A stretch of 64,000 bases of DNA, from the NCBI RefSeq assembly GCF_024124905.1, contig NZ_JAMXST010000007.1, forward strand, positions 1-64,000, given 5' to 3'. Under the pieces are notes generated by a model. The model had not been told where the DNA came from and did no database searches. It was given only the letters and a program-made list of their open reading frames with translations. Both the position numbers and the translations under genes were made by a program. This document shows, one piece after another, positions 11,381-57,919 of this stretch (the first letter of the stretch is position 1; each line of letters begins with the position of its first letter). The stretch is from Cellulosimicrobium cellulans. GTDB taxonomy: Bacteria > Actinomycetota > Actinomycetes > Actinomycetales > Cellulomonadaceae.

Positions 11381-11433
11381 GAACACGACATGGCGGTCGC
11401 TTTCACGCTGATAACGACCCCCATGTCGTGTTC
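11381..11433. repeat. Palindromic element, family A copy 1 (purD / protease)
   Basis: Arms 11381-11401 and 11413-11433 around GAACACGACATGG. The left arm has two base changes from the family sequence (GGCGGTCGCT instead of GGGGGTCGTT). It lies between two convergent genes and could terminate both. Related copies are at 21017, 45907 and 57865. Confidence 0.85.
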
Positions 11434-11457
11434 GGCGCCCTGGGGGGGTGGGTCCTG

Positions 11458-13053
11458 TCAGGCTCGGTGCCACTTCTGGGCCGCGGTGCCGTTGCACGTC
11501 CAGATCTGGAGCTTCGTCCCGTCGGTGCTGTTGCTGCTCGGGACGTCCACGCACTTGTTCGCGAGGACGGACACGAGGTCGCCCGCGCCGCTCAGGACGA
11601 ACTGCTGGGCGGGGTTGCCGCTGCAGTTCGCGAGCTGCACGGCGGTCCCGTCGGCCGTGGCGGCCCAGGCCACGTCCATGCACTTGCCACCCGCGCGGAC
11701 CGTGCCGTCGGGCTCGAACGTCCAGCGCTGCGCGCTCGTCCCGTTGCAGGTCCAGAGCTGGAGCCGCTTGCCGTCGCTGAAGTCCGAGCTCGGGACGTCG
11801 ATGCACTTGCCCGCGAGCCCGACGAGCGCGCTGCCCGAGCCGCCGCCCGTGGTGACGAGGGACAGCCCGTACGCCGAGAGGATCGGGTTCACGGGCTGGT
11901 AGATGAACTTGCCGCCGTTCGAGCAGTCGTTGATACGGCCCGACGTGACGCCCTGCGCCTGGTTGCCCGAGATCACGGAGCCGCCGGAGTCGCCGCCCTC
12001 GGCGCACGCGGAGCCGCGCACGAGCCCGGGGATGTCGCCGTTGCCGTAGTTCACGGTGATGTTCTTCTGCTCGATGACGCCGCAGCGCCAGCCCGTCGTC
12101 GCGCCGGACCGGCAGACGGACGCGCCCACGGGCGCCTCGGCGGACCCGGCGACGTCGACCGTGCCGCCCGCGTAGTTGTTCACGCGGGGGACGGGGGTGA
12201 ACCCGGCGTCGACGCGCACCCAGGCGTAGTCGTGGCCGGGGAACGACGCCGCCTGGACCGTGCCCATGCGCGCCCAGCTCGCCGTGAGCACCTCCTTGCC
12301 GGCGGCGCCGCAGTGCCCGGCCGTGACGAAGCCGCCCTGGACGGCGAAGCCGATCGAGCAGGCCGAGCCCGACGACGCCCCGGGGTCCCGCGTGATGTAC
12401 CGGTCGCCGCCGCGCACGTCGGCCGCGAGCTCGTACGGTGCGTCGACGACCTCGGTCCGTACGGCCGACGGGTCGACCCCCGACGCGGCGACGAACGCCT
12501 CGGCCGCGCCGGCGTCGAGCGACTCGACCACGACCTCGTTCGTCGTCACGTCCACGTACCAGGCCTGGACGGCGTCGGGCGTCCCCGCGTGGTCGAGGTC
12601 TGCGGCGAGCGCGTCCAGGTCGGCGAGGCTGTGCTCGACGACGACGGCCTCGGCGCCGGCCGCCTCGACCTCCGGGACGGCGGAGGGGTCCGTGACGGCG
12701 ACGACGGGCGTCGCGGCGTCGGCGTCGACCCACGTGCCGGCGTACGCCGCGCCCAGACCGCCGCTCAGCGACTGCTCGACGGCGCCTGTCGCGGCGTCGA
12801 GCGCGAGCCGGTCGGCGACGCCGGCCGCGTCGAGGCCCAGGTCGCGCTCCAGCGCGCGGAGCTGGCCGGGGGACAGGTCGTCGGGCCCGGGAACGGGGTC
12901 GGCGAGCAGCGCGGGGGCCCCGGCCCCGGTGGTCGGCGGTGCGGCGACGGGTGCGCTCGCGCTCGCCGACGTCGCGAGCCCGACGCTCGCGGCGATCACG
13001 CCGATCCCGGTTGCTAGCGCTGTCAGGCGATGGTGCATCGTGCCGTGGTGCAT
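11458..13053 (-). CDS. Secreted S1 serine protease with propeptide and ricin-type lectin domain (yeast-lytic protease type)
   Basis: A 531-residue preproprotein. A signal peptide occupies about residues 1-35 (HHRL then a hydrophobic stretch ending ASASA), followed by a long acidic, alanine-rich propeptide to about 210. The chymotrypsin-fold domain, alpha-lytic/streptogrisin type, has TAGHC (His about 247), HDYAWVRVD (Asp) and GGDSGGS (Ser about 355). The tail, about 405-531, is a beta-trefoil of three ricin-type repeats with QRW, QQF and QKW. This layout is that of Rarobacter protease I, whose tail binds mannose on yeast walls; that role here is inferred. ATG 13053 has GAGGAGG just upstream. 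A near-perfect LacI-family operator lies in its promoter. Confidence 0.92.
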   Translation of the reverse strand: MHHGTMHHRLTALATGIGVIAASVGLATSASASAPVAAPPTTGAGAPALLADPVPGPDDLSPGQLRALERDLGLDAAGVADRLALDAATGAVEQSLSGGLGAAYAGTWVDADAATPVVAVTDPSAVPEVEAAGAEAVVVEHSLADLDALAADLDHAGTPDAVQAWYVDVTTNEVVVESLDAGAAEAFVAASGVDPSAVRTEVVDAPYELAADVRGGDRYITRDPGASSGSACSIGFAVQGGFVTAGHCGAAGKEVLTASWARMGTVQAASFPGHDYAWVRVDAGFTPVPRVNNYAGGTVDVAGSAEAPVGASVCRSGATTGWRCGVIEQKNITVNYGNGDIPGLVRGSACAEGGDSGGSVISGNQAQGVTSGRINDCSNGGKFIYQPVNPILSAYGLSLVTTGGGSGSALVGLAGKCIDVPSSDFSDGKRLQLWTCNGTSAQRWTFEPDGTVRAGGKCMDVAWAATADGTAVQLANCSGNPAQQFVLSGAGDLVSVLANKCVDVPSSNSTDGTKLQIWTCNGTAAQKWHRA

Positions 13054-13158
13054 CGTTGCCTCCTCGGTGCGGATGTCGCCCTGCCGTCGTCGGCAGGGTC
13101 GGGACAGCGGTGCGGGCGCCCCCCGAGGGGGCTGCTCCGATGCGTGCCCCCGACGGTG

Positions 13159-13172
13159 AGGGAGCGCTCCCA
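13159..13172. promoter_or_regulatory. CebR/LacI-type operator upstream of the protease gene
   Basis: AGGGAGCGCTCCCA matches 13 of 14 bases of the cellobiose-responsive CebR box TGGGAGCGCTCCCA known from streptomycetes and relatives. It sits about 17 bases downstream of the candidate minus-strand -10 TACTGT (13189-13194) and 106 bases before the ATG. A repressor bound here would block transcription of the protease. The rest of 13054-13377 has a small hairpin at 13078-13097 and the purC promoter, and nothing else I can identify. Confidence 0.7.
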
Positions 13173-13188
13173 CGACCGTCCTGACGGC

Positions 13189-13194
13189 ACAGTA
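13189..13194 (-). promoter_or_regulatory. Protease promoter -10 candidate
   Basis: TACTGT on the minus strand, placing the start site just before the CebR-like operator. No convincing -35 is visible. Confidence 0.45.
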
Positions 13195-13370: not shown

Positions 13371-13377
13371 AGGGGCC

Positions 13378-14842: not shown

Positions 14843-14883
14843 CCTCCGACACGCGTCGAGGGTTGGCTCTATGGGTCGTCATC

Positions 14884-20990: not shown

Positions 20991-21016
20991 GCGGTGACGC
21001 TACAGCCTCCCGCCGA

Positions 21017-21067
21017 CCACGACATGAGGGTCGATATCCCGCGGATCACGAGCCTCATGTCGTGTTC
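21017..21067. repeat. Palindromic element, family A copy 2 (after LLM gene)
   Basis: Arms 21017-21033 (CCACGACATGAGGGTCG) and 21050-21066 (CGAGCCTCATGTCGTGT) pair with two mismatches around a loop. It lies downstream of the minus-strand LLM gene at 21131 and upstream of the DUF gene promoter, so it can terminate the former. Confidence 0.8.
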
Positions 21068-21130
21068 GACGGCGTGCCAGGTCGTGTTCGGCAGCGAGGC
21101 GGGTGGATGGCCCGACGGGCGGTCGGCGGG

Positions 21131-32374: not shown

Positions 32375-32450
32375 CCCCCGACGCTACGAAGGCCCGCACG
32401 GCCGGTCCACACCATTCCGGAGCACCGCGCCGACCATGCGCCTGTTGCCC

Positions 32451-32510
32451 GCCGACCATGCTGTTGTGGCCCGTCCCGACGGCGGGACGGGCCACGACCA
32501 CATGGTCGGC
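32451..32510. repeat. Long palindrome after metZ (singleton)
   Basis: Arms 32451-32477 and 32484-32510: GCCGACCATG, five variable bases, GTGGCCCGTCCC, then its complement; the only mismatches are inside the five-base block. The loop is GACGGC. A partial direct copy of the left arm precedes it near 32429. It lies at the 3' end of minus-strand metZ and can act as terminator. Confidence 0.8.
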
Positions 32511-32520
32511 GCGAGGGTCG

Positions 32521-38509: not shown

Positions 38510-38551
38510 TCGGCGGGCTCGCCGAGCACGAGCCTCCGTGGTGTCGAGAAC

Positions 38552-38590
38552 GGGTTGGTGTCGCTATCCGCTCGACAGCGACACCAACCC
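38552..38590. repeat. Palindrome between GNAT and MaoC genes (singleton)
   Basis: Arms GGGTTGGTGTCGCT (38552-38565) and AGCGACACCAACCC (38577-38590) are perfect; weaker pairing continues outward to CGAGAAC / GTGTTCGG. It lies between convergent genes and can terminate both. Confidence 0.8.
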
Positions 38591-38609
38591 CGTGTTCGGC
38601 AGCGGGGCG

Positions 38610-45754: not shown

Positions 45755-45837
45755 CCTGATGGCGGCCGGCCCCTGACCGGCCCGTCCCCGGAACGTCCTC
45801 GGCACAGCAGGCGGAGCGGTACCGCCGCCGAGGTCGG

Positions 45838-45880
45838 GCCCGGGCGGCACGACGCCCACCAGCCGTCGTGCCGCCCGGGC
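45838..45880. terminator. Terminator hairpin after fadE-like gene
   Basis: Perfect 17-base stem, GCCCGGGCGGCACGACG and its complement, loop of nine bases. A family A palindrome follows only 26 bases later. Confidence 0.8.
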
Positions 45881-45906
45881 CGTTGCCGTCCGGTCCCCGA
45901 TCCCGC

Positions 45907-45961
45907 CGAACACGACATGGGGGTCGTTCTGGACCTGAGAACGACCCCCATGTCGTGCTCG
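45907..45961. repeat. Palindromic element, family A copy 3
   Basis: Arms 45907-45930 and 45938-45961 (beginning CGAACACGACATGGGGGTCG) with one mismatch and a seven-base loop. It lies between the convergent fadE-like and lipoprotein genes. Confidence 0.88.
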
Positions 45962-46004
45962 ACCGCGTGCGACGTCGTGCTCGGCGCGGCACGGGCGCTG
46001 CCGG

Positions 46005-46961
46005 TCAGGTCGGGTTGCAGCGTGCCGCCATCGTGGCGAGCAGCCCGACGTCGGGCCGCCACGGCTCGAGGTTCCACGTCGCCTTGTCCGGGGCGCCCAC
46101 CGCGTGGCACACGAGCTGGTCGTGCATCGTCGGCGTGTCGGCCTCCGGCTCGGCCGCGACGACCTGCGCCCAGACGAGCTCCTGGCCCGCCTGGCCCGCG
46201 GCGCGCGCCCACGCGGTCGGGTCGACGGCGAGCGACCGTCCGCCCTCGCGCTCGCCCCAGTCGGTGCTCCGCACCGCCTGCGTGCCCAGCGTCACGACGA
46301 CGTCCCAGGCCGCGGGCGGGCCGGTGTCGGTCCCGCTCGTCTCGTCGGCACCGGACGAGGCGTCCGGCGTGGTGCCCGACGGCGTCCCGGTCGCGGGCGC
46401 GAGCGTCACCTCCGCGCGGTGGGCATCCAGAAGCGCGACCCGCACGCCGGGGGCGTCGGGTGCGGGCGGACCGACGACGCGCGGGGCGTCGAGCCCGCCG
46501 ACGGGCGTGCCGGCGTCGTCCAGGACGGTCAGGGTGCCGTCCGGGTGGCGCACGAGCGAGCCGTGCTCGACCGAGACCAGAGCCGGGGCGTCGGCGAGCA
46601 CGAGCGAGACGTCCGACGCGCCCTCCTCGCCCGGGGAGACAGTCGCGGCCGGAGCACCCTCGCCCTCCGCGGTCGACGCGAGCGCGGGCGCCGCGACCTC
46701 GACGGTCGCCGAGCCGACGGGCACCCGCACGACCGTGGGGTCCGCAGTCGTGTCGCCACCTGCCTCTGCTGTGCCGTCGTCGCCGGGCTCGCCGGACGTG
46801 CCGTCCGCCCGGGTCGTCGGGACCGGGCCGTGGCTCGGTGAGGACGTGCCGTCGTCGGGCGTGCACCCGGCGAGGACGACGAGCGCGAGGACGCCGGTGG
46901 CGAGCGCCCGCGTCGTCGCACGGGGGTGGCGCCGCGCACCGGCACGGCCGGGCCGGGTCAC
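46005..46961 (-). CDS. Putative secreted lipoprotein, DUF2599-like C-terminus
   Basis: A 318-residue predicted lipoprotein: positively charged N-terminus, hydrophobic stretch and lipobox LVVLAGC ending at a cysteine near residue 33. A long linker rich in G, T, D and S follows, a low-complexity middle, and a conserved-looking end, HDQLVCHAVGAPDKATWNLE then WRPDVGLLATMAARCNP. That end resembles the DUF2599 family, which I recall from actinobacteria but cannot verify. Its GTG overlaps the NUDIX stop (GTGA). Confidence 0.75.
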   Translation of the reverse strand: MTRPGRAGARRHPRATTRALATGVLALVVLAGCTPDDGTSSPSHGPVPTTRADGTSGEPGDDGTAEAGGDTTADPTVVRVPVGSATVEVAAPALASTAEGEGAPAATVSPGEEGASDVSLVLADAPALVSVEHGSLVRHPDGTLTVLDDAGTPVGGLDAPRVVGPPAPDAPGVRVALLDAHRAEVTLAPATGTPSGTTPDASSGADETSGTDTGPPAAWDVVVTLGTQAVRSTDWGEREGGRSLAVDPTAWARAAGQAGQELVWAQVVAAEPEADTPTMHDQLVCHAVGAPDKATWNLEPWRPDVGLLATMAARCNPT

Positions 46962-47398
46962 GACGGCACGGGGAGCAGGCCCGCCCAGCGCCGGCCGAGG
47001 TCGACGAGCCCCACGCGCCGGAGCGCGTCGACCTCGTCGGGCGTGAACCAGCCGACGTCGTCGGTCGACTCGTCCTCCTCGACGCGCAGCCCGCCGCCCA
47101 CCACGTGGGCGCGGTAGACGATCCGGATCGCGTGGAGCGACCGGTCGCGGTCCTCGGCGCGCAGCCGGTCCTCGGCGTCGATCACGATGCTGTCGACGCC
47201 GAGCAGGCCGTCGAGCTCGACGTCGTAGCCGGTCTCCTCGCGCACCTCGCGGACGGCCGCGGCCTCCGGGTGCTCGCCGGGGTCGATGCCGCCGCCGGGC
47301 AGGGTCCACCCGTCGCGGCCTCCCTCGCTCCAGTGGGGGAGGAGCATCCTCCCGTCCTCACGGACGATCACGGCGTAGGCGGCGACGCGGATCTGCAT
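46958..47398 (-). CDS. NUDIX hydrolase
   Basis: A 146-residue NUDIX protein. The Nudix box is GGGIDPGEHPEAAAVREVRE followed by ETGYD (about residues 38-62), with the metal-binding REVREE core intact. The substrate (a nucleoside diphosphate derivative) cannot be told. CATGAT six bases before the ATG is a possible leaderless promoter. Translationally coupled to the lipoprotein gene, an odd pairing of cytoplasmic and surface proteins. Confidence 0.9.
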   Translation of the reverse strand: MQIRVAAYAVIVREDGRMLLPHWSEGGRDGWTLPGGGIDPGEHPEAAAVREVREETGYDVELDGLLGVDSIVIDAEDRLRAEDRDRSLHAIRIVYRAHVVGGGLRVEEDESTDDVGWFTPDEVDALRRVGLVDLGRRWAGLLPVPS

Positions 47399-47552
47399 GG
47401 ACCCATCATGCGCGACGACCGTCGTCGAGCCCTGCGTCGGCGGCGACCAGGCGGGTCCGCCGCGCCGAGCATGCGAGCCGCCCGCCCCGACGCCCGGACG
47501 GCCGGCATGCTCGACCGGTGGAAGGGGGGACTCTTGCGCGAACAACCGATGT

Positions 47553-47576
47553 CGAATACTCTGAATCAAGTATTCG
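47553..47576. promoter_or_regulatory. PadR operator before padR-ABC operon
   Basis: CGAATACT, eight bases, AGTATTCG: a perfect inverted repeat of the ATACT-N8-AGTAT kind bound by PadR proteins. It ends one base before GGAGG of the padR gene, so the regulator can shut its own operon. Confidence 0.8.
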
Positions 47577-47586
47577 GAGGTGAGCA

Positions 47587-48252
47587 ATGTCCCGTCGTCC
47601 CGTGTCCAACCCGCTCGCGCTCGCCGTGCTCGCGAGCCTCGCCGAGCGACCGATGTACCCGTACGAGATCACGACGACCCTGCGCGAGCGGGGCAAGGAC
47701 GACAGCATCCGGCTCAACTTCGGCTCGCTGTACTCCGTCATCAAGTCGCTCGAGAAGCACGGCTTCATCACGCCGTCGCACTCGGAGCGCGAGGGCAACC
47801 GGCCCGAGCGCGTCGTCTACGAGATCACGGAGGCGGGCAAGGTCGAGGCAGCCGCGTGGCTGCGCGAGCTGCTCGCCGTGCCGTCCAAGGAGTACCCAGA
47901 CGTCGAGGCGGGGCTGTCGCTCATCGCGATGCTCTCGCCCGAGGAGGTCGCGGCGCTCCTGCGCGCGCGCCTCGCGTCGCTCGACAACGAGATCCGCACG
48001 CGCGACGCCGGGCTCGCCGGCGCCGCGGCGGCCGGGCTGCCCGAGATCTTCCTCGTCGAGGCCGACTACCGGCTCGCCATGCTGCGCGCGGAGCGCACGT
48101 GGATCGACCGGTTCGCCGCACGCCTGGAGGCGGGCGAGGTCGGTGGCCAGGACGGCTGGGCCGAGATGGCGCGCCTGCGCGCCGCGGGTGCCTCGCCCGA
48201 GGAGATCGAGGAGGTCGTGCGCCGCCACCTGCCCGCCGACCTCACCCCCTGA
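47587..48252 (+). CDS. PadR family transcriptional regulator
   Basis: A 221-residue PadR protein of the longer subgroup with a C-terminal coiled coil. NPLALAVLASLAERPMYPYEI starts the winged helix, FGSLYSVIKSLEKHGFI is the recognition helix, and ITEAGKVEAAAWL the end; a helical dimerisation domain follows. GGAGGTGA precedes the ATG. The gene is followed by an ABC exporter, so it probably controls drug or metabolite export. Confidence 0.93.
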   Translation: MSRRPVSNPLALAVLASLAERPMYPYEITTTLRERGKDDSIRLNFGSLYSVIKSLEKHGFITPSHSEREGNRPERVVYEITEAGKVEAAAWLRELLAVPSKEYPDVEAGLSLIAMLSPEEVAALLRARLASLDNEIRTRDAGLAGAAAAGLPEIFLVEADYRLAMLRAERTWIDRFAARLEAGEVGGQDGWAEMARLRAAGASPEEIEEVVRRHLPADLTP

Positions 48253-48256
48253 ACCA

Positions 48257-48287
48257 CCGGCGCGCGCCCGACGAGGGCGCGCGCCGG
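48257..48287. terminator. Hairpin after padR
   Basis: Perfect 13-base stem CCGGCGCGCGCCC / GGGCGCGCGCCGG, loop GACGA. Confidence 0.65.
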
Positions 48288-48300
48288 ACGGAGAAAGAGT

Positions 48301-48332
48301 GGTGGCCCGGATGCGCCAACATCCGGACCACC
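48301..48332. promoter_or_regulatory. Hairpin in the leader of the ABC transporter genes
   Basis: GGTGGCCCGGATG, six bases, CATCCGGACCACC; one mismatch. It lies 14 bases after the preceding terminator-like hairpin and 127 bases before the ABC start, and may be a processing or attenuation site. No ligand-binding motif recognised. Confidence 0.45.
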
Positions 48333-48458
48333 GAGCCCGAGTCGTCCCGCCGGAACCGACGGAACTGCTGCGTCAACAGTCACCCAGGGCCCTCCCATGC
48401 TAGCCGCGCGGGAGAGGCCACCCCCGGCGAGACGGCTCCCGACACAAGGAGCCTCATC

Positions 48459-49556
48459 GTGCCCTCCACCACCCGCGCGCGGGAGACGGCGATCGACGCC
48501 GTCGACCTGCGCAAGACCTACCCGGGCGGCCGCGGCCGCCCGCCCGTGCACGCGCTCGACGGCCTGTCGTTCGCCGTGCCCGCGGGGACCGTGTTCGCCC
48601 TGCTCGGCCCCAACGGCGCGGGCAAGTCGACGACGGCCAAGATCCTCACGACGCTCAGCCGCGCGGACTCGGGCACGGCGACCGTCGCCGGCATCGACGT
48701 CGCGCGCCAGCCCGAGCGCGTGCGGCGCGCGATCGGCTACGTCGCGCAGAAGCCCGTGACCGACCCCATGGACACCGGGCGCGAGAACCTCGTCCTCGCG
48801 GGCCGGCTCCAGGGCCTCGGCGCGCGCGCCGCCCGCACCCGGGCGACCGAGCTGCTCGACCGGTTCTCCCTCGCGGACGCGGCCGACCGCCTCGTGAAGA
48901 CGTACAGCGGCGGCATGGCGCGCAAGCTCGACGTCGCGATGGGGATCGTGCACCGGCCGCAGGTCCTGTTCCTCGACGAGCCGACGACCGGGCTCGACCC
49001 CGAGGCGCGCGCCGAGATGTGGGCGGAGATCGAGCGCATGACCGCGCGCGAGAGGATGACGATCCTCCTCACCACGCACTACCTGGACGAGGCCGACCGC
49101 CTCGCCGCGAACCTCGCGATCGTCGACCACGGCCGCGTCGCCGTCGCGGGGACCCCCGACGCGCTGAAGGACGAGCTGCGCGGCGACGGGATCGTCGTCG
49201 AGCTCGCGGCCCCGACCGCCGCGGCGTCCGGGCTGCCCGACGGCGGTGCCGCCCTCGCGGCCCGCGTCACCGCCGCGGTCGGCACGTGCGCGGGCGTCCG
49301 CGACGTGCACGTCGAGGGCCGCACCCTGCGCGCCCGGGCCGACTCGGGCGCCGTCGCGCTGCCCGCCGTCCTCACCGCGCTCGACGCCGCGGGGCTCCCC
49401 GTCGCGTCGGCGACGCTCGCGCGCCCGAGCCTCGACGACGTGTACCTGCGGCACACGGGCCGCACGTTCACGGCCGCGCAGTCCTCCGCGGACGCGCCGG
49501 CCGGGGGCCGCCCGGGAGCCGATGCCGGCGCGACCGTCGAGGGGGTGGCGGCATGA
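48459..49556 (+). CDS. ABC exporter ATP-binding protein (DrrA-like)
   Basis: A 365-residue ATPase. Walker A GPNGAGKST near residue 50, signature YSGGMARK, Walker B LFLDEPTTGLDP and switch TTHYLDEADRLA are intact. The C-terminal domain after about residue 240 resembles daunorubicin-type DrrA extensions. GTG 48459 follows AAGGAG. Its stop overlaps the permease start (ATGA). Likely multidrug export under the upstream PadR. Confidence 0.93.
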   Translation: MPSTTRARETAIDAVDLRKTYPGGRGRPPVHALDGLSFAVPAGTVFALLGPNGAGKSTTAKILTTLSRADSGTATVAGIDVARQPERVRRAIGYVAQKPVTDPMDTGRENLVLAGRLQGLGARAARTRATELLDRFSLADAADRLVKTYSGGMARKLDVAMGIVHRPQVLFLDEPTTGLDPEARAEMWAEIERMTARERMTILLTTHYLDEADRLAANLAIVDHGRVAVAGTPDALKDELRGDGIVVELAAPTAAASGLPDGGAALAARVTAAVGTCAGVRDVHVEGRTLRARADSGAVALPAVLTALDAAGLPVASATLARPSLDDVYLRHTGRTFTAAQSSADAPAGGRPGADAGATVEGVAA

Positions 49557-50341
49557 CCGCCGTCGTGCACACCGGGCTGCTCACCGCGCGGGCGCTGCGC
49601 CAGGGCGCGCGCATCCCCGTGTTCATGGTCATGAACCTCGTGCAGCCCATGATCTGGCTGCTGCTGTTCGGGCAGCTCTTCCAGGCGGTCGTCGAGATCC
49701 CCGGGTTCTCCACGGGCGGGACGTACCTCGAGTTCATCACGCCCGGCGTCGTCATGATGACGGCGATGTTCGGGGCGGCGTGGGCCGGGACGTCGTACGT
49801 GCAGGACATGGACCGCGGCGTCATGGACCGCTTCCTCACGTCGCCGGCGTCGCGCGGCGCGCTCATGGCGTCGACGATGATCTACCAGGCCGTCATCGCG
49901 GTCGGGCAGGCGCTCGTCGTGCTCGCGGTCGCGTGGCTGTGCGGCGCGCGGTTCGGCAGCACGCCCGGCGAGACGACGCTCGGCGTCCTCGCGTTGCTGC
50001 TCGCCGTCGTGCTGCTCACGGCCCTCTTCTCGGCCCTGAGCAACGCCATGGCCCTGCTCACCGGGCAGCAGGAGGCGCTCATCGGCATCTCGCAGCTCAT
50101 CACGCTGCCGCTCATGTTCCTGTCGTCCGCCGTGATGGACACGCGTCTGTCCGCGGACTGGGTGGCCGACGTCGCGCGGTACAACCCGTTCGACTGGGCC
50201 GTCGTCGCGGGGCGCGAGGCGCTCGCCGCCTCGCCGGACTGGGGCGTGGTGTGGGGTCGGCTCGGGCTGCTCGCGCTCGCGGCGGTCGTCATGGGCTGGC
50301 TCGCGACGCAGGCCTTCCGCACCCGCCAGCGCTCGGCCTGA
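49553..50341 (+). CDS. ABC-2 type exporter permease
   Basis: A 262-residue integral membrane protein with about six helices. MVMNLVQPMIWLLLFGQLFQ, FLTSPASRGALMAS and SSAVMDTRLSADWVADVARY-like end (ALSNAMALLTGQQEAL in helix 4 region) match the ABC-2/DrrB family. It forms the channel for the preceding ATPase. A 13-base perfect terminator stem follows. Confidence 0.92.
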   Translation: MTAVVHTGLLTARALRQGARIPVFMVMNLVQPMIWLLLFGQLFQAVVEIPGFSTGGTYLEFITPGVVMMTAMFGAAWAGTSYVQDMDRGVMDRFLTSPASRGALMASTMIYQAVIAVGQALVVLAVAWLCGARFGSTPGETTLGVLALLLAVVLLTALFSALSNAMALLTGQQEALIGISQLITLPLMFLSSAVMDTRLSADWVADVARYNPFDWAVVAGREALAASPDWGVVWGRLGLLALAAVVMGWLATQAFRTRQRSA

Positions 50342-50350
50342 CGCCGCGCA

Positions 50351-50389
50351 CGACGTCCGCCCGAGGCCCACGGCCCCGGGCGGACGTCG
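50351..50389. terminator. Bidirectional terminator
   Basis: CGACGTCCGCCCG (50351-50363) and CGGGCGGACGTCG (50377-50389), perfect, between the convergent permease and APC transporter genes. Confidence 0.8.
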
Positions 50390-50393
50390 TCGC

Positions 50394-51878
50394 TCACCGG
50401 GAGCCGTCGTCGTCGGACTCGTCCGGGACCTCGTCCTCCAGGCGCGACACGTCGGAGAACGCGATCTGGCGGTGCCGCACCGAGCGGTTGTACAGCCACG
50501 TGACGAACGAGAGCAGGACCCCCAGGCCGACGAGCGCGCCCGCGATGACGTACTGCTCCTGCTGCTCGGCGCTGCGCGCCCACGGGCCGGCGAGGTACGC
50601 GCACGTGAGCGCGCCGAGGACCGCGAGCCACGTGCGGGTGCGGAAGTGCTGGTGGTCGACGCGGTCGCGGCGCAGCACGAGGAGCGCGACGTTGACGATC
50701 GTGAACACGACGAGCAGGAGCAGCGACGTCGTGCCGCCGAGCAGCGCGATCGCGTTGGTGCCCGCCTCGGTCCCCGACTGCCGCACGACGTACACGATGA
50801 GCGCGAACGCGATGGCCGTCGTCACGAGGATCGACACCCACGGCGTCCGGCGGAACGGGTGCACCTGGCCGAACGCGCGAGGCAGCACGCCCTGGTTCGC
50901 CATGCCGTAGAGCAGGCGCGACGCCATGAGCATGTTGATGAGCGCCGAGTTCGCGACCGCGAACATGCCGATGAACGGGAAGATCGTGTCGAACGGCAGG
51001 TTCGGCGCCCCCGCCGCGACGACCTGCGTGAGCGCGGACCCCTTCGAGTCGTCCACGAGGTCGCCGACGGGCACGAGCGCGACGGCCGTGATCGCGACGA
51101 GCACGTAGATCGCGCCCGTGATCGACAGCCCGGTGAGCATCATGCGCGGGAAGTCGCGCACGGGGTTCTTGCACTCCTCGGCCATGTTCACCGAGTCCTC
51201 GAAGCCCACCATGGCGAAGAACGCGAGCGTCGTCGCGGCCGTCACGGCGAGGAACACGCTCTTGTCGTCCGCGCTCTCGAACACCACGACGCGGGAGAAG
51301 TCGGCGCGGCCCTGCGTCGTCGCCCACAGCCCGACGAAGATCACGAGCAGCAGGCCGGACAGCTCGACGAGCGACAGCACGACGTTCGCCCGGACGCTCT
51401 CGCCGACGCCCCGGAAGTTGACGAGCGCGACGAGGGCCATGAAGCCGAGCGCGATGAGGAGCCTGCCGTCGCCGCCCGTCGGGAGGGCCAGCCCGAAGCC
51501 GTCGGAGACGAACCCGGCGAACGCGTTGGACGCCGTCGACGCCGACGTGATGCCCGAGCTCATGACCATGAACGCGACCACGAACGTCAGCAGGTGGATG
51601 CCGAACGCCTTGTGCGTGTAGAGCGCCGCGCCGGCGGCGCTCGGGTACTTGGTGACGAGCTCGAGGTAGGAGAACGCGGTGATCGTCGCGACGACGAACG
51701 CGAGCAGGAACGGCAGCCACGCCGCCCCGCCGACCTCGCCCGCGACCTGGCCCGTGAGCGCGTACACGCCCGTGCCGAGGATGTCCCCGACGATGAACAG
51801 GAGCAGGAGCCTGGGCCCCATGACCCGCTTGAGCTCCGGCTGCTGCCGTTCCTCCGTGCGACCCGCGGTCTGGCTCAT
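50394..51878 (-). CDS. APC family amino acid/amine permease
   Basis: A 494-residue transporter with 12 predicted helices. LLLFIVGDILGTGVYALTGQ is the APC helix-1 motif with the unwound glycine region; FFAMVGFEDSVNMAEE is helix 6 and the following loop. The C-terminal tail is acidic and cytoplasmic. AGGGAG precedes ATG 51878. Substrate not decidable; cationic amino acid and polyamine carriers of this group look alike. Confidence 0.9.
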   Translation of the reverse strand: MSQTAGRTEERQQPELKRVMGPRLLLLFIVGDILGTGVYALTGQVAGEVGGAAWLPFLLAFVVATITAFSYLELVTKYPSAAGAALYTHKAFGIHLLTFVVAFMVMSSGITSASTASNAFAGFVSDGFGLALPTGGDGRLLIALGFMALVALVNFRGVGESVRANVVLSLVELSGLLLVIFVGLWATTQGRADFSRVVVFESADDKSVFLAVTAATTLAFFAMVGFEDSVNMAEECKNPVRDFPRMMLTGLSITGAIYVLVAITAVALVPVGDLVDDSKGSALTQVVAAGAPNLPFDTIFPFIGMFAVANSALINMLMASRLLYGMANQGVLPRAFGQVHPFRRTPWVSILVTTAIAFALIVYVVRQSGTEAGTNAIALLGGTTSLLLLVVFTIVNVALLVLRRDRVDHQHFRTRTWLAVLGALTCAYLAGPWARSAEQQEQYVIAGALVGLGVLLSFVTWLYNRSVRHRQIAFSDVSRLEDEVPDESDDDGSR

Positions 51879-51940
51879 GAGAGGCTCCCTCGCGTCTCGA
51901 CGTCCCGAACCTCCATGGAACCCCCGGCCGCGGCCTCGTG

Positions 51941-53038
51941 TCAGCGCGAACGCGCGCGTGTCGCCTCCGGCCCGCCGAACCCGGGGTCGCTCCCCAGGTC
52001 GGCCGGCGGGTGGGGAGTGATCCCGGGCTCGGCGGACGTCGGGCGTGCGCTGGTGGCGTGACGCGGACGTCGGCGCAGGACGCCCGTCGTCGTCGCGACG
52101 CCCAGCAGGAGCACGACGCCGCCCAGCAGCTCGGCCGCGTTCGGCACCTCGTCGAGCACGACCCACGCCGCGAGCATCCCCACGGGCGGCACGAGCATCG
52201 TGAACGGCACCACCGCCGACGCCGGGTACCGGGCGAGCAGCGTGTTCCAGATCCCGTAGCCCACGAGGCTCGCGAGCCACGCGGTGTACAGGGTCGACAG
52301 GACCGGCGCGAGCGTGAGGTGCGTGAGCGCGTGCCCGACGACGTCCGGCCCGTCGAGCGCGAGCGACAGCCCGAGCATGGGGACCGGGACGACGAGCGCC
52401 GACCACACCGTCATCGACAACCCGTCCAGCCCGGGCCGCGAGGAAACGCCCCGGCCCGCCGAGGTAGAACCCTGGTCGGCCGAGGTAGAGCCCTGGTCGG
52501 CCGGGGTAGAGCCCCGGTCTCGCGATGTAGCGCCCTGGTCGCGTCGGCCGGCCCGGCGCGCGACGACGTTGCCCACCGCCCACGACGCCGCGGCGGCGAG
52601 GGTCACGACGAACGCGAGCGCCGGCGTCGACGCGCTGCGCCCCGCGCCGACGACGACGAGCCCGGCGGCACCCACCAGGACGCCGACGAGCTGCGAGCGC
52701 GTCGGCACCTCGCGCAGCGCGGCGGCGGCGAACAGGACGGTGAGCCCGACCTGCGCCTGGAGCACGAGCGACGCGAGCCCGGCGGGCATGCCGAGCGCGA
52801 GCGCGGTGTAGAGCAGGCCGAACTGGCCGAGGCTCATGAACGTGCCGACGAGCAGCACGTCCCGCCAGCGCGCGCGGGGCCGGGGGACGAGGAAGATCGC
52901 CGGGACGAGCACGACGAGGAAGCGCAGGGCGACGAACAGCGTGGGCGGCACGTCGCCCAGGCCGAGGTCGATGACGACGAAGTTCACGCCCCACAGGACG
53001 GCGACGAGGACGGCGAGAAGGGACGAGCGCAGGGGCAT
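51941..53038 (-). CDS. EamA family transporter with palindrome-encoded tail and repeat linker
   Basis: A 365-residue DMT-superfamily exporter with two EamA repeats (about residues 5-140 and 205-325) and ten helices. LWGVNFVVIDLGLGDVPP and the second-half YTAWLASLVGYGIWNTLL are typical. Two oddities: the loop between the halves has four 21-base tandem units giving GSTSADQ-like heptads, and the last 35 or so residues are encoded by a family B palindrome. Divergent from a LysR gene that probably controls it. Confidence 0.9.
   Translation of the reverse strand: MPLRSSLLAVLVAVLWGVNFVVIDLGLGDVPPTLFVALRFLVVLVPAIFLVPRPRARWRDVLLVGTFMSLGQFGLLYTALALGMPAGLASLVLQAQVGLTVLFAAAALREVPTRSQLVGVLVGAAGLVVVGAGRSASTPALAFVVTLAAAASWAVGNVVARRAGRRDQGATSRDRGSTPADQGSTSADQGSTSAGRGVSSRPGLDGLSMTVWSALVVPVPMLGLSLALDGPDVVGHALTHLTLAPVLSTLYTAWLASLVGYGIWNTLLARYPASAVVPFTMLVPPVGMLAAWVVLDEVPNAAELLGGVVLLLGVATTTGVLRRRPRHATSARPTSAEPGITPHPPADLGSDPGFGGPEATRARSR
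51972..52035. repeat. Palindromic element, family B copy 2, inside the EamA 3' end
   Basis: Arms 51972-51996 and 52011-52035 (begin CCGCCGAACCCGGGGTCG) pair over 25 bases with three mismatches. The EamA reading frame runs through the whole element and stops at 51941. Confidence 0.85.
52457..52541. repeat. Four 21-base tandem repeats in the EamA linker
   Basis: Unit similar to GGTAGAGCCCTGGTCGGCCG, spaced exactly 21 bases (anchors at 52473, 52494, 52515, 52536). In frame, each unit adds seven residues, so copy-number change would not break the protein. Confidence 0.8.
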
Positions 53039-53096
53039 GGGTACGAGGGTGCGCCCTGGTCATCGTGCACGTCCAGCGCACGGTCGTGCACAGTTC

Positions 53097-53116
53097 TCGG
53101 TAGCTCTGCTAACCGA
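53097..53116. promoter_or_regulatory. LysR-type binding site in the eamA-lysR gap
   Basis: TCGGTAGCTCTGCTAACCGA: imperfect dyad with T-N11-A character, directly before the lysR -10 TAGCCT (53117-53122), which ends six bases before the lysR ATG. Confidence 0.6.
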
Positions 53117-53128
53117 TAGCCTGGGGTC

Positions 53129-54025
53129 ATGATCGACCTCGCCGCCGTGGACGCGCTGCTCGCCGTCGACCGCACCGGGACCGTGCACGCCGCGGCGCGC
53201 GACCTCGGGTACACGCCGTCCGCCGTCTCGCAGCAGGTCAAGCGCCTGGAGCGCGACCTCGGCGCGCGCCTGCTCGACCGCGAGGGGCGCGGCGTCGTCC
53301 TCACGGCCGCCGGCCGGCGCGTGGTCGAGGAGGGACGCGCGCTGCGCGAGCAGGTCGAGTCGCTCCGCGCGCGTCTGCACGACGCCGGCGCCCGCCCCAC
53401 GGGGACCGTGCGCCTCGGGTCGTTCTCGACGGCGGTGCGCGGCGTCGTCGCGCCGCTCGTCGCGCGCGTGCGGGACGACGTCCCGGACCTGCGCCTCGTC
53501 GTCGAGGAGACCGAGCCGTGGGACGCGGTCGCGGCCGTCGCGGCGGGGACCCTGGACCTCGCGCTCGTGCACCACTGGGAGGGCGTCGGCCTCGCGCTCC
53601 CGCCGAGCCTGCGCGCCGAGGAGCTGTTCCGCGACGAGGCCGACGTCCTGGTGCACGCGTCGAGCCCGCTCGCGGGCCGGGCCGCGCTCACGCCGTCGGA
53701 CCTGCTCGACGAGACGTGGGTCTGCACGCCCGACGGCACCATCTGCTACGAGTGGTTCTGCCACATGTTCGCGCGCGAGCCGCGCGTCCCGCGCATCGAC
53801 TTCCGGTGCCTCGAGTTCGCGTCGCAGGTCGAGGTCGTCGCGCAGGACCTCGCCGTCGCGCTCGTCCCGCGACTGGGCCGGGGACCCCTGCCGTCCGACG
53901 TCGTCGCGGTGCCCGTGCGCGAGCCCGTCCCGACCCGCCCGGTGACGGTCGTGTGGCGCGCGACCATGACCGACGCCCCCGCGGTCCGCTACCTCCGCGA
54001 GCGCCTGCGCGCCGTCGCGCCCTGA
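53129..54025 (+). CDS. LysR family transcriptional regulator
   Basis: A 298-residue LysR protein. The winged helix LLAVDRTGTVHAAARDLGY then TPSAVSQQVKRLERDLG spans about residues 7-45; the effector domain starts near 92 (GTVRLGSFSTA). Apparently leaderless. Divergent from an EamA exporter, the usual pairing for LysR-controlled export of amino acids or related compounds. The effector is unknown. Confidence 0.93.
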   Translation: MIDLAAVDALLAVDRTGTVHAAARDLGYTPSAVSQQVKRLERDLGARLLDREGRGVVLTAAGRRVVEEGRALREQVESLRARLHDAGARPTGTVRLGSFSTAVRGVVAPLVARVRDDVPDLRLVVEETEPWDAVAAVAAGTLDLALVHHWEGVGLALPPSLRAEELFRDEADVLVHASSPLAGRAALTPSDLLDETWVCTPDGTICYEWFCHMFAREPRVPRIDFRCLEFASQVEVVAQDLAVALVPRLGRGPLPSDVVAVPVREPVPTRPVTVVWRATMTDAPAVRYLRERLRAVAP

Positions 54026-54030
54026 CCAGG

Positions 54031-54093
54031 CGCCGAGCTCGGGATCGCTCCTCACCCTCGGCCGTGCGTGGGGAGAGATCCCGGGTTCGGCGG
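54031..54093. repeat. Palindromic element, family B copy 3
   Basis: Arms 54031-54054 (CGCCGAGCTCGGGATCGCTC...) and 54069-54092 with four mismatches. Starts five bases after the lysR stop and probably terminates it. Confidence 0.83.
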
Positions 54094-54192
54094 CACCAAG
54101 GGCGAGGGGTCCGCCGCCGGAACTTCGTGGGCGCGTGGTCCGTTGAGGTCGGCGAGCGCGTCAGCGCCGCACCCGTCCGACGAAGGGGCCCG

Positions 54193-54768
54193 ATGACCGA
54201 GCACGAGCCGACCCGGCGGTCCGCCGACCCGCGCGCCGTGGCGATCGCGGGCCTGATGACCGTCGCCTGGTACGCCGTGCCCGACGTCGTCCGGCCGCGC
54301 TGGGCCCGTGCGCTCGCCAAGACCGCGGTCGCGACGGCGGGTGCCGTGCTCACGGTGACCTCGACCGCGGAGGGTCGCGACGCGCGCGAGGGCGTCCGGT
54401 CGCTGCGCGACGCCGTCCGGTCGCCCGACGACGCCGGCGACCACGTCGCGGCGGCGAGCACCGGGACGACCGGCGGCCCCGGGGCCGAGCCGGCGGACGG
54501 CGCCGCGCGCGAGGACAACACGTACGTGCCGGACCGCGAGGAGCCGACACCGGTCCCGCCCGGCGTCGTCGCGGCCGGAGCGATCGGGGGAGTCGCGCTC
54601 GCGACGACGCTCGCCGTCGCCGGGGAGAAGTGGGTCTACCGCCGCGGGGAGCGGCTGCGCGCACGGGGCGTCCGGCTGCCGCACACGCGCGTCGGGCTCG
54701 TGCTCGGCGCGCTGGCCGTGGCGCTCGCGGCGGCGGAGCCGCTCCTGTGGAACGCTGAGGACCGCTGA
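54193..54768 (+). CDS. Hypothetical membrane protein
   Basis: A 191-residue protein, no family recognised. Hydrophobic stretches at about 15-30, 40-55, 118-135 and 168-185 suggest three or four helices; a hydrophilic D/G-rich loop (about 60-115) separates the halves. ATG 54193 has AAGGGG about 6 bases upstream. Confidence 0.7.
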   Translation: MTEHEPTRRSADPRAVAIAGLMTVAWYAVPDVVRPRWARALAKTAVATAGAVLTVTSTAEGRDAREGVRSLRDAVRSPDDAGDHVAAASTGTTGGPGAEPADGAAREDNTYVPDREEPTPVPPGVVAAGAIGGVALATTLAVAGEKWVYRRGERLRARGVRLPHTRVGLVLGALAVALAAAEPLLWNAEDR

Positions 54769-54841
54769 GGCAGCGACCCGGGCCGGCCCGCCGGCGGGAG
54801 GTCGTGCACCGTGCGGCCTCGCGGACCGGGAGGGGCCGAGG

Positions 54842-55228
54842 ATGATCGGGTTCGGGCTGGCGCTCGCGGGGGTCGCCGCGGCGATCCACGGGTACATCTT
54901 CGTCATGGAGTCGCTCACGTGGACGAGCGCGCGCACGCGCGCGACCTTCGGCACGTCGCGCGAGGAGGCCGCGGCGACGAAGGAGCTCGCGTTCAACCAG
55001 GGCTTCTACAACCTGTTCCTCGCGGTGCTCGTCGTGCTCGGGATCGTCCTGTACGCGACGGGCCGGCACGACGTGGGCCTCACGCTCGTCCTCGCGGGCG
55101 CCGGGTCGATGGTCGCCGCCGGGCTCGTGCTGATCCTCTCGTCGCCGTCCAAGGCGCGCGCCGCGCTGGTGCAGCTCGTCCCGCCGCTGCTGGGCGTCGT
55201 GGGGGTCGTCGTCGGCCTCGTCTCCTGA
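54842..55228 (+). CDS. DUF1304 family membrane protein
   Basis: A 128-residue protein with four predicted helices. [12 protein letters not shown] (residues about 21-36) and [11 protein letters not shown] (about 53-63) are the conserved DUF1304 motifs. Function unknown. GGGGCCGAGG lies before ATG 54842. A hairpin follows the stop. Confidence 0.88.
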
Positions 55229-55238
55229 CACCCGCCTG

Positions 55239-55266
55239 CTGGGGCCGCCCACGTGGTCGGCCCCAG
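55239..55266. terminator. Terminator hairpin after DUF1304 gene
   Basis: CTGGGGCCG / CGGCCCCAG with a ten-base loop. Confidence 0.65.
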
Positions 55267-55338
55267 GCGGGACCGGGAGGGGGACGACGGGGACGCCGAC
55301 CGGAGGGCGGACGGGACCACGAGGCCCGGCGACCCGCC

Positions 55339-55353
55339 GGTAGACTGGGCCCC
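55339..55353 (+). promoter_or_regulatory. purL promoter with shared pur motif
   Basis: TAGACT at 55341-55346 in GGTAGACTGGGCCCC. A leader of about 46 bases precedes the purL ATG. Confidence 0.7.
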
Positions 55354-55398
55354 GCGCCGTCGTGCGCTCCCCGCATCAGCGCCCACCCGAGGGAAACG

Positions 55399-57774
55399 AT
55401 GACCGCCCCCGCACCCCAGGCTTCCGCACGCTCCGACGCTCGTCCCGCCGCAGGACCGACGCTGGACACCGTCGAGCACGCCGCCGCCACTCCCGACGAG
55501 GTCCAGCCGTACGCCGAGCTCGGCCTCAAGCCCGACGAGTACCAGCGCATCCGCGACATCCTGGGGCGCCGCCCCACGGCCGCGGAGCTCGCGATGTACT
55601 CGGTCATGTGGTCCGAGCACTGCTCGTACAAGTCGTCCAAGGTCCACCTGTCGAAGTTCGGCGCGGCCACCACGGACGAGATGAAGAAGCACCTGCTCGT
55701 CGGCATCGGCGAGAACGCGGGCGTCGTCGACATCGGCGACGGCTGGGCCGTGACGTTCAAGGTCGAGTCGCACAACCACCCGTCGTTCGTCGAGCCCTAC
55801 CAGGGCGCCGCGACGGGTGTCGGCGGCATCGTGCGCGACATCATCTCGATGGGCGCGCGCCCCGTCGCCGTCATGGACCAGCTCCGCTTCGGCGCCGTCG
55901 ACCACCCGGACACGGCGCGCGTCGTGCACGGCGTCGTGAGCGGCGTCGGCGGCTACGGCAACAGCCTCGGCCTGCCGAACATCGGCGGCGAGCTCGTCTT
56001 CGACTCCTCGTACCAGGGCAACCCCCTCGTCAACGCGCTGTGCCTCGGCGTGCTGCGCCACGAGGACATCCACCTCGCCAACGCCTCGGGCGTGGGCAAC
56101 AAGGTCGTGCTGTTCGGCGCCCGCACGGGCGGCGACGGCATCGGCGGCGCCTCGATCCTCGCCTCGGAGACGTTCGAGGACGGCGTGCCCGCCAAGCGCC
56201 CGAGCGTCCAGGTGGGCGACCCCTTCATGGAGAAGGTCCTCATCGAGTGCTGCCTCGAGCTGTACGCGGCGCAGGTCGTGGAGGGCATCCAGGACCTCGG
56301 CGCCGCCGGCATCTCGTGCGCGACGTCGGAGCTCGCCTCGAACGGCGACGGCGGCATGCACGTGTGGCTCGACGACGTCCTGCTGCGCGACCCGACGCTC
56401 AACGCGGGCGAGATCCTCATGTCCGAGTCGCAGGAGCGCATGATGGCGGTCGTCGCGCCCGACAAGCTCGACGAGTTCCTCGCGATCACCCGCAAGTGGG
56501 ACGTCGAGACTGCCGTTATCGGCGAGGTCAACGACTCCGGGCGCCTGACGATCGACCACCACGGCGAGCGCATCGTCGACGTCGACCCGCGGACCGTCGC
56601 GCACGAGGGCCCGGTCTACCACCGCCCGTACGCGCGCCCGTCGTGGCAGGACGGGCTCAACGCCCGCACCGTCGAGGCCGACGCGCTCGCCCGCCCCGAG
56701 AGCGGGGACGAGCTCCGCGCGACGGCCCTGCGCCTCCTCGCGTCGCCCAACCTCGCGTCCAAGGAGTGGGTGACGAACCAGTACGACCGGTTCGTCCAGG
56801 GCAACACCGCGCTCGCGCAGCCCGACGACTCGGGCGTGGTCCGCGTCGACGAGTCCACCGGCCTCGGCGTCGCGCTCGCGACGGACGCGAACGGCCGCTA
56901 CGGCAAGCTTGACCCGCGTACGGGCGCACGCCTCGCGCTCGCCGAGGCGTACCGCAACGTCGCGACGACGGGCGCCCGCCCGCTCGCCGTGACCGACTGC
57001 CTCAACTTCGGCTCGCCCGAGGACCCCGACTCGATGTGGCAGCTCGTCGAGGCGATCGAGGGCCTCGCGGACGCGTGCCGCGAGCTCGGCGTGCCGGTGA
57101 CGGGCGGCAACGTGTCGCTCTACAACGGGACCGGCGAGCCGGGGCAGATCGACTCGTCGATCCACCCGACCCCGGTCGTGGGCGTGCTCGGCGTGCTCGA
57201 CGACGTCGCGCACGCGACGCCGTCGGGCTGGCGCGAGACGGGGGAGAGCATCTACCTCCTCGGCACCACGCGTGCGGAGCTCGACGGGTCGGCGTGGGCC
57301 GACGTCGAGCACGGCCACCTGGGCGGCGTGCCCCCGCGGGTGGACCTCGCGGCCGAGAAGGCGCTCGCCGGCGTCCTCGTCAACGCGAGCCGCGACGACC
57401 TCGTGTCGGCCGCGCACGACCTCTCCGAGGGCGGGCTCGCGCAGGCGCTCCTCGAGGCGTCGCTGCGCTTCGGCGTCGGGGCCACCGTGTCGCTCGACGC
57501 GCTGACCGAGCGCGACGGCGTCACCCCGTTCGAGGCGCTGTTCTCCGAGTCGACGGCCCGCGCGCTCGTCGCGGTGCCGCGGGGCGAGGAGTCCAAGCTC
57601 GTCGACGCGTGCGTCGCGCGCGGCGTCCCCGTGCTGAAGATCGGCGAGACGGGCACCGAGCCCGGCGCCGTCGCCGAGTCGGGCGAGGCGCTCGAGGTCG
57701 CGGGCCTGTTCACCATCCCGCTCAGCGAGGCGGACGCGGCCTTCCGCGGCACGCTCCCGGCCATCTTCGGCTGA
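55399..57774 (+). CDS. purL: FGAM synthase subunit PurL (small type)
   Basis: A 791-residue ATP-dependent amidotransferase subunit, converting FGAR to FGAM with PurS and Pur[17 protein letters not shown] near the start, [21 protein letters not shown] with the catalytic histidine, GARPVAVMD, and the repeat-half signatures NFGSPEDP and [10 protein letters not shown] are present. It lacks the glutaminase domain, consistent with separate purQ. ATG 55399 follows GAGGGAAA; the reading frame extends upstream but only this start fits the family. The first about 35 residues are a low-complexity leader. Confidence 0.97.
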
Positions 57775-57788
57775 AACCCCGCACCCCC

Positions 57789-57823
57789 GACGCCCCGGTC
57801 ACCGCCCAGGTGACCGGGGCGTC
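57789..57823. terminator. purL terminator
   Basis: Perfect 15-base stem GACGCCCCGGTCACC / GGTGACCGGGGCGTC with loop GCCCA, 15 bases after the stop. Confidence 0.85.
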
Positions 57824-57864
57824 GTCGTCCGTGGACCCTGCCCGACCACGACACAGCCCGCTGT

Positions 57865-57919
57865 CGAGCACGACATGAGGGTCGTTCTCCGCCCGAGAAC
57901 GACCCTCATGTCGTGCTCG
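57865..57919. repeat. Palindromic element, family A copy 4 (perfect)
   Basis: Arms 57865-57889 and 57895-57919 are perfectly complementary over 25 bases (begin CGAGCACGACATGAGGGTCG), loop CGCCC. It comes 41 bases after the purL terminator. Confidence 0.92.

What the first reader, a model, noticed from the sequence alone, without database searches (positions are those of the whole stretch)
11381..57919. Family A: four intergenic palindromes with the same ACGACATG core
At 11381-11433, 21017-21067, 45907-45961 and 57865-57919 the same inverted repeat occurs: arm CGARCACGACATGRGGGTCG followed by TTCT, short loop, complement. The 57865 copy is perfect over 25 bases and others have one to three changes, some compensating between G and A. 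All lie in gaps; two of four sit between convergent genes and the others follow a gene end. Such conserved arms are more than a terminator needs, suggesting a REP-like mobile or protein-bound element.
Basis: partly seen in the sequence, partly recalled or inferred. Interest (0 to 1): 0.8.

Follow-up and report, generated by a model that had tools for sequence, protein, structure and literature searches.

The report
REP-like palindromes with switching dialects
The four palindromes belong to a large family of about 84-base hairpin-forming DNA repeats scattered between genes in Cellulosimicrobium and related genera; many loci are shared between species while their hairpin arms differ, and no known mover enzyme was found.

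Summary
The four palindromes belong to a dispersed family: 74 sites found in this Cellulosimicrobium genome (a lower bound), seven of them or their kin in the window.

The unit is about 84 bp and asymmetric: half-site, roughly 25-bp arm, loop, arm, half-site, spacer, third half-site.

Three features stand out. (1) Many loci are shared between species, yet arms and loop are replaced together: 16 of 30 classifiable ortholog pairs switched arm type, with flanks 93% identical. Species show inverse 'dialects'. (2) Copies cluster around the replication origin (53 of 56 TTG-type sites in the origin-proximal half of one complete relative). (3) They favour gene 3' ends, without RNA-strand bias in mismatches.

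One 82-bp copy pair with unrelated flanks shows copying of the unit. No Y1/RAYT transposase was found in 26 of 26 genomes.

Best reading: a RAYT-less, REP-like DNA element with inter-locus overwriting, probably also serving as a bidirectional 3'-end barrier. The copying mechanism and the reason for the origin bias are unknown.

The parts
   Evidence: R2 97.2 bits; RNA z -9.1; orthologous site filled with other arms in G002, G007, G009, G015; no element in G011, G008, G013, G014, G003, G012, G010 and only a remnant in G004
45901..45990 (+). element copy, ATG-type arms, between convergent genes
   Evidence: R2 94.9 bits; copies at the corresponding place in G009, G002, G004 with different arms
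21008..21097 (+). element copy, ATG-type arms, between two minus-strand genes; tail on the other side in G009 and G002, remnant in G004
   Evidence: R2 83 bits; orthologs
11351..11440 (-). element copy, ATG-type arms, between purD and a convergent protease-prodomain/lectin gene
   Evidence: R2 75.9 bits; purD 3' gap filled in 11 of 16 genomes
38516..38604 (-). further copy, arms of the TTG family (CACGGGGTTGGTGTCG), convergent genes
   Evidence: R1 61.9 bits, R2 71.9 bits, sequence
32424..32514 (-). related copy with a different half-site (CGCCGACCATG ... CATGGTCGGCG, third CATGGTCGGCG)
   Evidence: R2 47.1 bits, sequence and orthologs
59025..59115 (+). related copy built of CGCCGAACCCGGG half-sites, double palindrome
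   Evidence: R2 47.0 bits, sequence, inverted repeat I2
45837..45881 (.). separate 18-bp GC hairpin between the acyl-CoA oxidase gene and the element
   Evidence: inverted repeat I19, 100% complementary
57789..57823 (.). separate hairpin after purL, present also in G011 and G004, which lack the element
   Evidence: read from the sequence

Best explanation
This is a REP-like, non-autonomous palindromic DNA element without a RAYT. Its unit is about 84 bp: half-site CGCCGARCACGA, arm, short loop, arm, half-site, spacer, then a third half-site. SHOWN: the unit is dispersed between genes; a whole unit can be copied (one 82-bp pair with unrelated flanks); at shared loci both arms and the loop differ together between species. 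INFERRED: a copying process (ectopic gene conversion, or re-insertion at resident half-sites by an unidentified enzyme) lets one arm type overwrite others across the genome, giving species 'dialects'. INFERRED: hairpin-templated repair or replication keeps the two arms matched and occasionally inverts the interior. INFERRED: copies persist at gene 3' ends because they are harmless there and stand in for an ordinary bidirectional terminator hairpin.
For: 74 sites by weight matrix in fetched stretches, 36 + 36 arm matches against 0 for the reversed control. Third half-site at the same distance in 32 of 43 copies. In G071 two copies 989 bp apart match at 82 of 83 bases with flank identity 0.32/0.20, which is background. 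39 ortholog pairs: aligned flanks 92%, outer half-sites 89%, arm middle 63%, loop 65%. Of these, 16 switched arm type (mid 0.42, loop 0.58, flank 0.93), 14 did not (mid 0.87, loop 0.81, flank 0.93), 5 were flipped and 4 unclear. Both arms are of one type in 146 of 152 elements, mixed in 1, unclassified in 5. Inverse dialect counts ATG:TTG, e.g. G006 38:4, G005 29:2, G009 6:44, G010 2:32; by eye the dominant type changes several times on the tree. GU versus AC mismatches in the sense strand 48 to 40, p 0.46. 3'-end preference. Another stem of 9 or more pairs in 5 of 34 element-bearing convergent gaps versus 16 of 28 element-free ones of 25 bp or more.
Against: No transposase or other mover was identified. 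No target-site duplication was seen at the one clear copy pair. Origin-proximal clustering is not predicted by a neutral mobile repeat. Neighbouring copies are not more alike than distant ones, which gives no support to local gene conversion. 8 of 75 sites are divergent and 5 fall in called genes; in G004 two of the hits lie in divergent gaps and one inside a gene. Terminator use was not measured; two window copies have a separate hairpin between the gene end and the element. The stem comparison is weakened because element-bearing gaps have less free sequence (median 33.5 bases against 63).
Confidence: 0.5

Rival explanations
1. Protein-bound chromosome-domain signal: a DNA-binding protein reads the palindromes in the origin-proximal half of the chromosome (working like ParB/parS, Noc or SlmA sites), and the dialects follow changes in its specificity.
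For: 53 of 56 TTG-type sites in complete G009 lie within 1.2 Mb of dnaA (half the genome), p 8e-13. In G000, 61 of 74 sites lie on 1.75 Mb of origin-proximal contigs and 13 on 2.64 Mb of distal ones (order inferred). Systematic 400-kb samples: 15 versus 3 sites at 50 bits or more, 27 versus 7 at E 1e-4, with 357 and 360 genes. Tail direction is not clearly tied to transcription (42 with, 29 against in co-directional gaps of six genomes) or, on the inferred order, to fork direction (33 with, 35 against). Mismatches symmetric between strands.
Against: Two arm types coexist in one genome (45 AA, 24 TT in G000). The unit is far longer than the known palindromic sites of such systems (recalled). 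Preference for 3' ends. Whole-unit copying. Convergent gaps are also somewhat more frequent in the proximal sample (67 against 51).
Confidence: 0.25
2. Conserved RNA hairpin at transcript ends: an intrinsic, often bidirectional terminator or mRNA 3'-end stabiliser, with arms coevolving to keep the RNA stem.
For: Location close to stop codons (median about 13 bp on the left side of 62 convergent cases) and between convergent genes. Very stable folds, z -4 to -10 for the eight folded strands. Covariation: 183 cells changed on both sides versus 75 in shuffles. Element-bearing convergent gaps seldom hold another stem.
Against: GU is not favoured over AC in the sense strand (48 to 40). No U-tract after the four window copies. 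Ordinary stems in element-free convergent gaps are as common in distal as in proximal DNA (18/34 and 18/36) while the elements are origin-biased. purL and the acyl-CoA oxidase gene have their own hairpin as well. A terminator does not need a shared arm sequence.
Confidence: 0.17
3. A DNA-uptake or recombination signal with species dialects, as in Neisseriaceae DUS.
For: Inverted repeats in intergenic terminator-like positions and species-specific variants resemble the account in the DUS dialect paper (PMC3630211, passages).
Against: Tens of copies found, not thousands; long composite unit; dialects do not follow the tree here, whereas the DUS paper reports congruence. Competence genes were not examined.
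Confidence: 0.04

Closest known systems
CGTC-tagged REPs (Di Nocera et al. 2013, PMC3733652; abstract and passages read)
   Same: Extragenic palindromes in many copies, mostly between convergent or co-directional genes, compensating stem changes, no dedicated transposase known; the consensus foot on the tail side reads CGTC here (position 51 is A in 31 of 43)
   Different: Their stems are 8-9 bp with 4-5-bp loops; here the stem is about 25 bp with a third half-site. The word Actinobacteria does not occur in that main text. Replacement of arms at shared loci and origin clustering are not described in the passages read.
REPINs with RAYT transposases (PMC3116915, passages)
   Same: Two conserved inverted ends, variable middle with compensatory changes, hairpin unit dispersed in extragenic space; an excised intermediate with a single-stranded 5' tail was proposed
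   Different: No Y1_Tnp in 26 of 26 genomes; contents switch at shared loci; origin-proximal clustering
DUS dialects of Neisseriaceae (PMC3630211, passages)
   Same: Species-specific sequence versions, inverted pairs near gene ends
   Different: Short motif in thousands of copies, dialect congruent with phylogeny; here a long unit in tens of copies and dialects that change on the tree
Noc/SlmA/ParB site sets (recalled, not read here)
   Same: Palindromic sites unevenly spread with respect to origin and terminus
   Different: Short sites with a known binder; no binder known here

Membership tests
REP (repetitive extragenic palindrome), broad sense | palindromic, extragenic, tens or more copies per genome | tested here: met
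   74 sites by weight matrix in fetched loci, 147 model matches on both strands with only 150 candidates scored; 70 of 75 in gaps by a simple gene caller, 5 called inside genes and not checked further
REP, GTAG or CGTC tagged | unpaired GTAG or CGTC at the foot of a 6-13-bp (GTAG) or 8-9-bp (CGTC) stem | tested here: inconclusive
   consensus foot on the tail side reads CGTC (position 51 A in 31 of 43), but the stem is about 25 bp
REPIN/RAYT system | RAYT (Y1_Tnp) gene in the genome | tested here: not met
   0 of 26 genomes; control positive in 5 of 14 reference genomes
REPIN/RAYT system | unit copied between loci | tested here: met
   82 of 83 identical bases at two loci with unrelated flanks in G071; one clear case
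Intrinsic terminator | stem-loop followed by a U-tract | tested here: not met
   no T-tract after the four window hairpins; the terminator scan of 45001-60000 reports none of the three elements there
Intrinsic terminator | ends transcripts in vivo | not testable with these tools
   needs RNA 3'-end data
Known Rfam RNA | match at gathering score | tested here: not met
   only two SAM-IV riboswitches in the window
Integron attC | GTTRRRY/RYYYAAC core sites and a nearby integron integrase | not tested
   the consensus ends do not read as GTTRRRY (motif recalled); no integrase search was made

The most novel reading that the evidence does not exclude
The palindromes are sequence-specific DNA sites that mark the origin-proximal half of the chromosome in a branch of Actinomycetes, and the site dialect is rewritten across the genome in step with a coevolving binding or copying protein: a self-updating chromosomal address.
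Probability: 0.2. Interest if true: 0.88.

Novelty: new variant of a known kind. Interest (0 to 1): 0.62.

Why it matters
REP-like elements are best understood where a RAYT transposase is present. Here a comparable family persists without a detectable one, shares many loci between species, and carries species-wide arm dialects. That makes the question of how dispersed non-coding repeats evolve in concert directly testable in complete genomes and strain collections. The strong origin-proximal clustering, not explained by gene number in the sample tested, hints at a link with replication or chromosome organisation. Palindromes with matched arm changes are also often taken as RNA structures; the equal GU and AC counts here argue against that shortcut.

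Tried and rejected
RAYT-driven REPINs: rejected as membership. Ordinary terminators only: weakened. Alternative pairing of the first half-site with the third: 80% of cells paired, but covariation no better than shuffles. Local gene conversion between neighbours: neighbours within 20 kb share type 20 of 35 times versus 19.0 in shuffles, and core identity near/far is 0.696/0.691: no support. Replication-strand bias: 33 with, 35 against, on the inferred contig order and without C2 and unclassified copies. Phage or plasmid carriage: no match in viral contigs with one degenerate pattern nor in plasmids with one copy; the phage collection was not searched. Rfam: nothing at the elements. Genus restriction: at first inferred, then corrected, since a broader model finds the scaffold in other genera of the family; only the ATG/CTG-type arms look restricted, with single one-sided arm matches at up to 2 mismatches in 2 of 14 same-order genomes, probably chance. 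Literature searches: among the rows listed none is, by title and abstract start, about such repeats in Cellulosimicrobium or relatives; some searches listed only part of their papers, and PMC8325422 (a C. cellulans genome paper naming 'palindromic repeat' once) was not opened. Template switching as a source of matched arms and inverted spacers is taken from the start of one abstract (PMC8604942, search listing only).

Weak points: the gene caller was a home-made codon model trained on the window; 5 of 75 sites fell inside called genes and were not checked by hand; orthologous blocks and the pooled elements are not independent; the 39 pairs include at least two rows that are out of register (G000 38549 and the G002 partner of C6:259871) and their flank identities are of blastn-aligned parts; 5 'flipped' orientation calls include at least one ambiguous one (C5:30608); the model search scores only 150 candidates per genome, so copy numbers are lower bounds, and the fetched stretches follow that capped list; the p value for G000 used 64 versus 14 sites (three extra window copies on C8 and one more on C3), whereas one search gives 61 versus 13. 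In one search many genomes have only 1 or 2 weak matches that may be chance. Dialect changes on the tree were judged by eye, not tested.
Full report
Observation. The four palindromes are in the sequence at the stated coordinates with a constant register and are far beyond chance. NCBI places the genus in Promicromonosporaceae, order Micrococcales.

Anatomy. Stacking 43 distinct copies and aligning 44 and then 72 gives one unit of about 84 bp: CGCCGAR-CACGACATGRGGGTCGTTATCC, a short loop, the complement of the arm, then YTCGACGGCGGGTGGG and a third half-site GTCGTGCTCGGCG. The third half-site lies at the same distance in 32 of 43 copies. The arm middle is variable: ATGAGGG, ATGGGTGC, GTTGCTG, GTCGGTG, GGTTGCTG and others, usually matched in both arms. 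On 71 distinct rows the 25-bp stem has 183 cells changed on both sides against 75 in shuffles, and covariation 0.282 against 0.121. Pairing of the first with the third half-site shows no excess covariation. The last two use other half-sites, and in 32424 the third half-site is again a copy of the outer one.

Number and place. The model finds 147 matches on both strands in the genome with 150 candidates scored. In the fetched stretches a weight matrix gives 74 sites; with the window copy at 38516, 75 were put in context: 33 convergent, 29 co-directional, 8 divergent, 5 inside called genes. In the window, taken whole, 4 of 10 convergent, 3 of 33 co-directional and 0 of 11 divergent gaps hold a copy; pooled over six orthologous blocks, which are not independent, 20 of 65, 16 of 204 and 2 of 66, although divergent gaps are the longest. 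In convergent gaps the left edge lies a median of about 13 bp after the stop codon. In co-directional gaps the tail points either way (15 same, 12 opposite in G000; 42 and 29 over six genomes).

Origin bias. dnaA lies at G000 C4:152,348, G039 2,824,653 and G009 333,187. Site spacing matches between G000 and the complete same-species genome G039 (for example all ten C8 sites have a counterpart), and from this I infer the contig order C3-C2-C5(reversed)-C6-C4-C8-C9. Then 61 of 74 sites lie on the 1.75 Mb of C6, C4, C8 and C9 around the origin and 13 on the 2.64 Mb of C5, C3 and C2. In G009, complete, 53 of 56 TTG-type sites lie within 1.2 Mb of dnaA, p 8e-13. A systematic sample of 20 x 20 kb each gives 15 sites at 50 bits or more in proximal (C4, C6) and 3 in distal (C2, C3, C5) DNA, or 27 and 7 at E 1e-4. 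Gene number (357, 360), GC and coding fraction are alike; convergent gaps are 67 and 51. G039 appears inverted over about 2.5 Mb relative to the inferred order, so its own map is less simple.

Shared loci, changing contents. Between the two strains of one species the window's seven copies are the same seven. At purL the site holds ATG-type arms in G000, G039, G006, G001 and G005, TTG-type arms in G007 and G009, other arms in G002 and G015, and no element in G011, G004 (remnant), G008, G013, G014, G003, G012 and G010: 9 of 17 filled. At purD it is filled in 11 of 16 genomes (G000, G039, G007, G005, G009, G002, G006, G010, G004, G015, G013) and absent in G011, G012, G014, G003 and G008. So loci are gained or lost as well as shared. 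For 39 ortholog pairs, aligned flanks are 92% identical, outer half-sites 89%, inner arm 78%, loop 65%, arm middle 63%. Of these, 30 could be classified in the same orientation: 16 switched arm type with mid 0.42 and loop 0.58, 14 kept it with mid 0.87 and loop 0.81, and flanks are 0.93 in both; 5 were flipped and 4 unclear. Both arms are of one type in 146 of 152 elements, mixed in one, unclassified in five. At 21008 the tail is on opposite sides in G000, G039, G005 and in G009, G002 while the outer half-sites stay, which equals an inversion of the interior.

Dialects. Counting one arm type and then the other with 2 mismatches gives ATG:TTG forward matches: G000 35:21, G001 21:3, G002 0:9, G003 0:5, G004 4:8, G005 29:2, G006 38:4, G007 22:13, G008 12:0, G009 6:44, G010 2:32, G011 0:4, G012 10:0, G013 15:2, G014 0:9, G015 2:25. 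On a purL+purD tree the dominant type changes several times by eye. All 24 copies sampled from other genera (G040, G052, G071) are TTG-type, which would make TTG the older form, but G008, G012 and G013, which branch early in the midpoint-rooted tree, are ATG-type, so the direction is unsettled. With the broader model, 45 of 81 genomes of the family match at E 1e-4 or better; the search nearly saturates (46-53 of 53 scored) in G040 and in the four genomes G052, G071, G086 and G099 of one genus; some others have 7-30 matches and many only 1-2 weak ones.

Copying. In G071 two copies 989 bp apart are identical at 82 of 83 bases from the first to the third half-site, while flanks match at background level. 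This shows the unit being copied and marks its ends. Whether by transposition or gene conversion is open; no target duplication is visible. L006/L010 is a longer segmental duplication and is not counted.

DNA or RNA. In co-directional copies read in the sense direction, GU and AC mismatches are equal (48 and 40, p 0.46, n 69 pooled from six genomes). Selection on an RNA stem should favour GU. Folds are nevertheless very stable, and element-bearing convergent gaps seldom have another stem (5 of 34, against 16 of 28 element-free gaps of 25 bp or more, though with less free sequence), so use as a bidirectional stop is likely but not shown. Ordinary stems are not origin-biased (18 of 34 distal, 18 of 36 proximal element-free convergent gaps).

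Conclusion. The family works like REPs and REPINs but fails the RAYT test (0 of 26 genomes). The copying agent, the reason for the origin bias and the benefit to the host, if any, are not known.

Noticed in passing
window 35130-35245 + and 62693-62802 +: Two SAM-IV riboswitch aptamers (Rfam RF00634), 113 and 80 bits.
   Followed up: no
L006 and L010 (G000 C2:695631 and C4:255475): Element plus at least 25 bp on each side identical on two contigs: a segmental duplication.
   Followed up: partly
G039 C1 0-2.52 Mb against G000 contigs C6 and C3: Site order suggests a large inversion between two strains of one species, or a misjoin in one assembly.
   Followed up: no
window 11458-12999 (-): A protease-prodomain/ricin-type lectin-domain gene lies next to purD in some species and not in others; in G015 the element is at the same place beside a different neighbour.
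   Followed up: partly
G004 C1 from about 797609: The ortholog of the 21008 site has lost the hairpin and keeps only two half-sites and a 10-base spacer, as expected for deletion of a palindrome.
   Followed up: no
window 32424-32514 and 59025-59115: Copies with a similar plan but different half-sites (CCATG and CCCGGG types), found at corresponding places in several relatives.
   Followed up: partly
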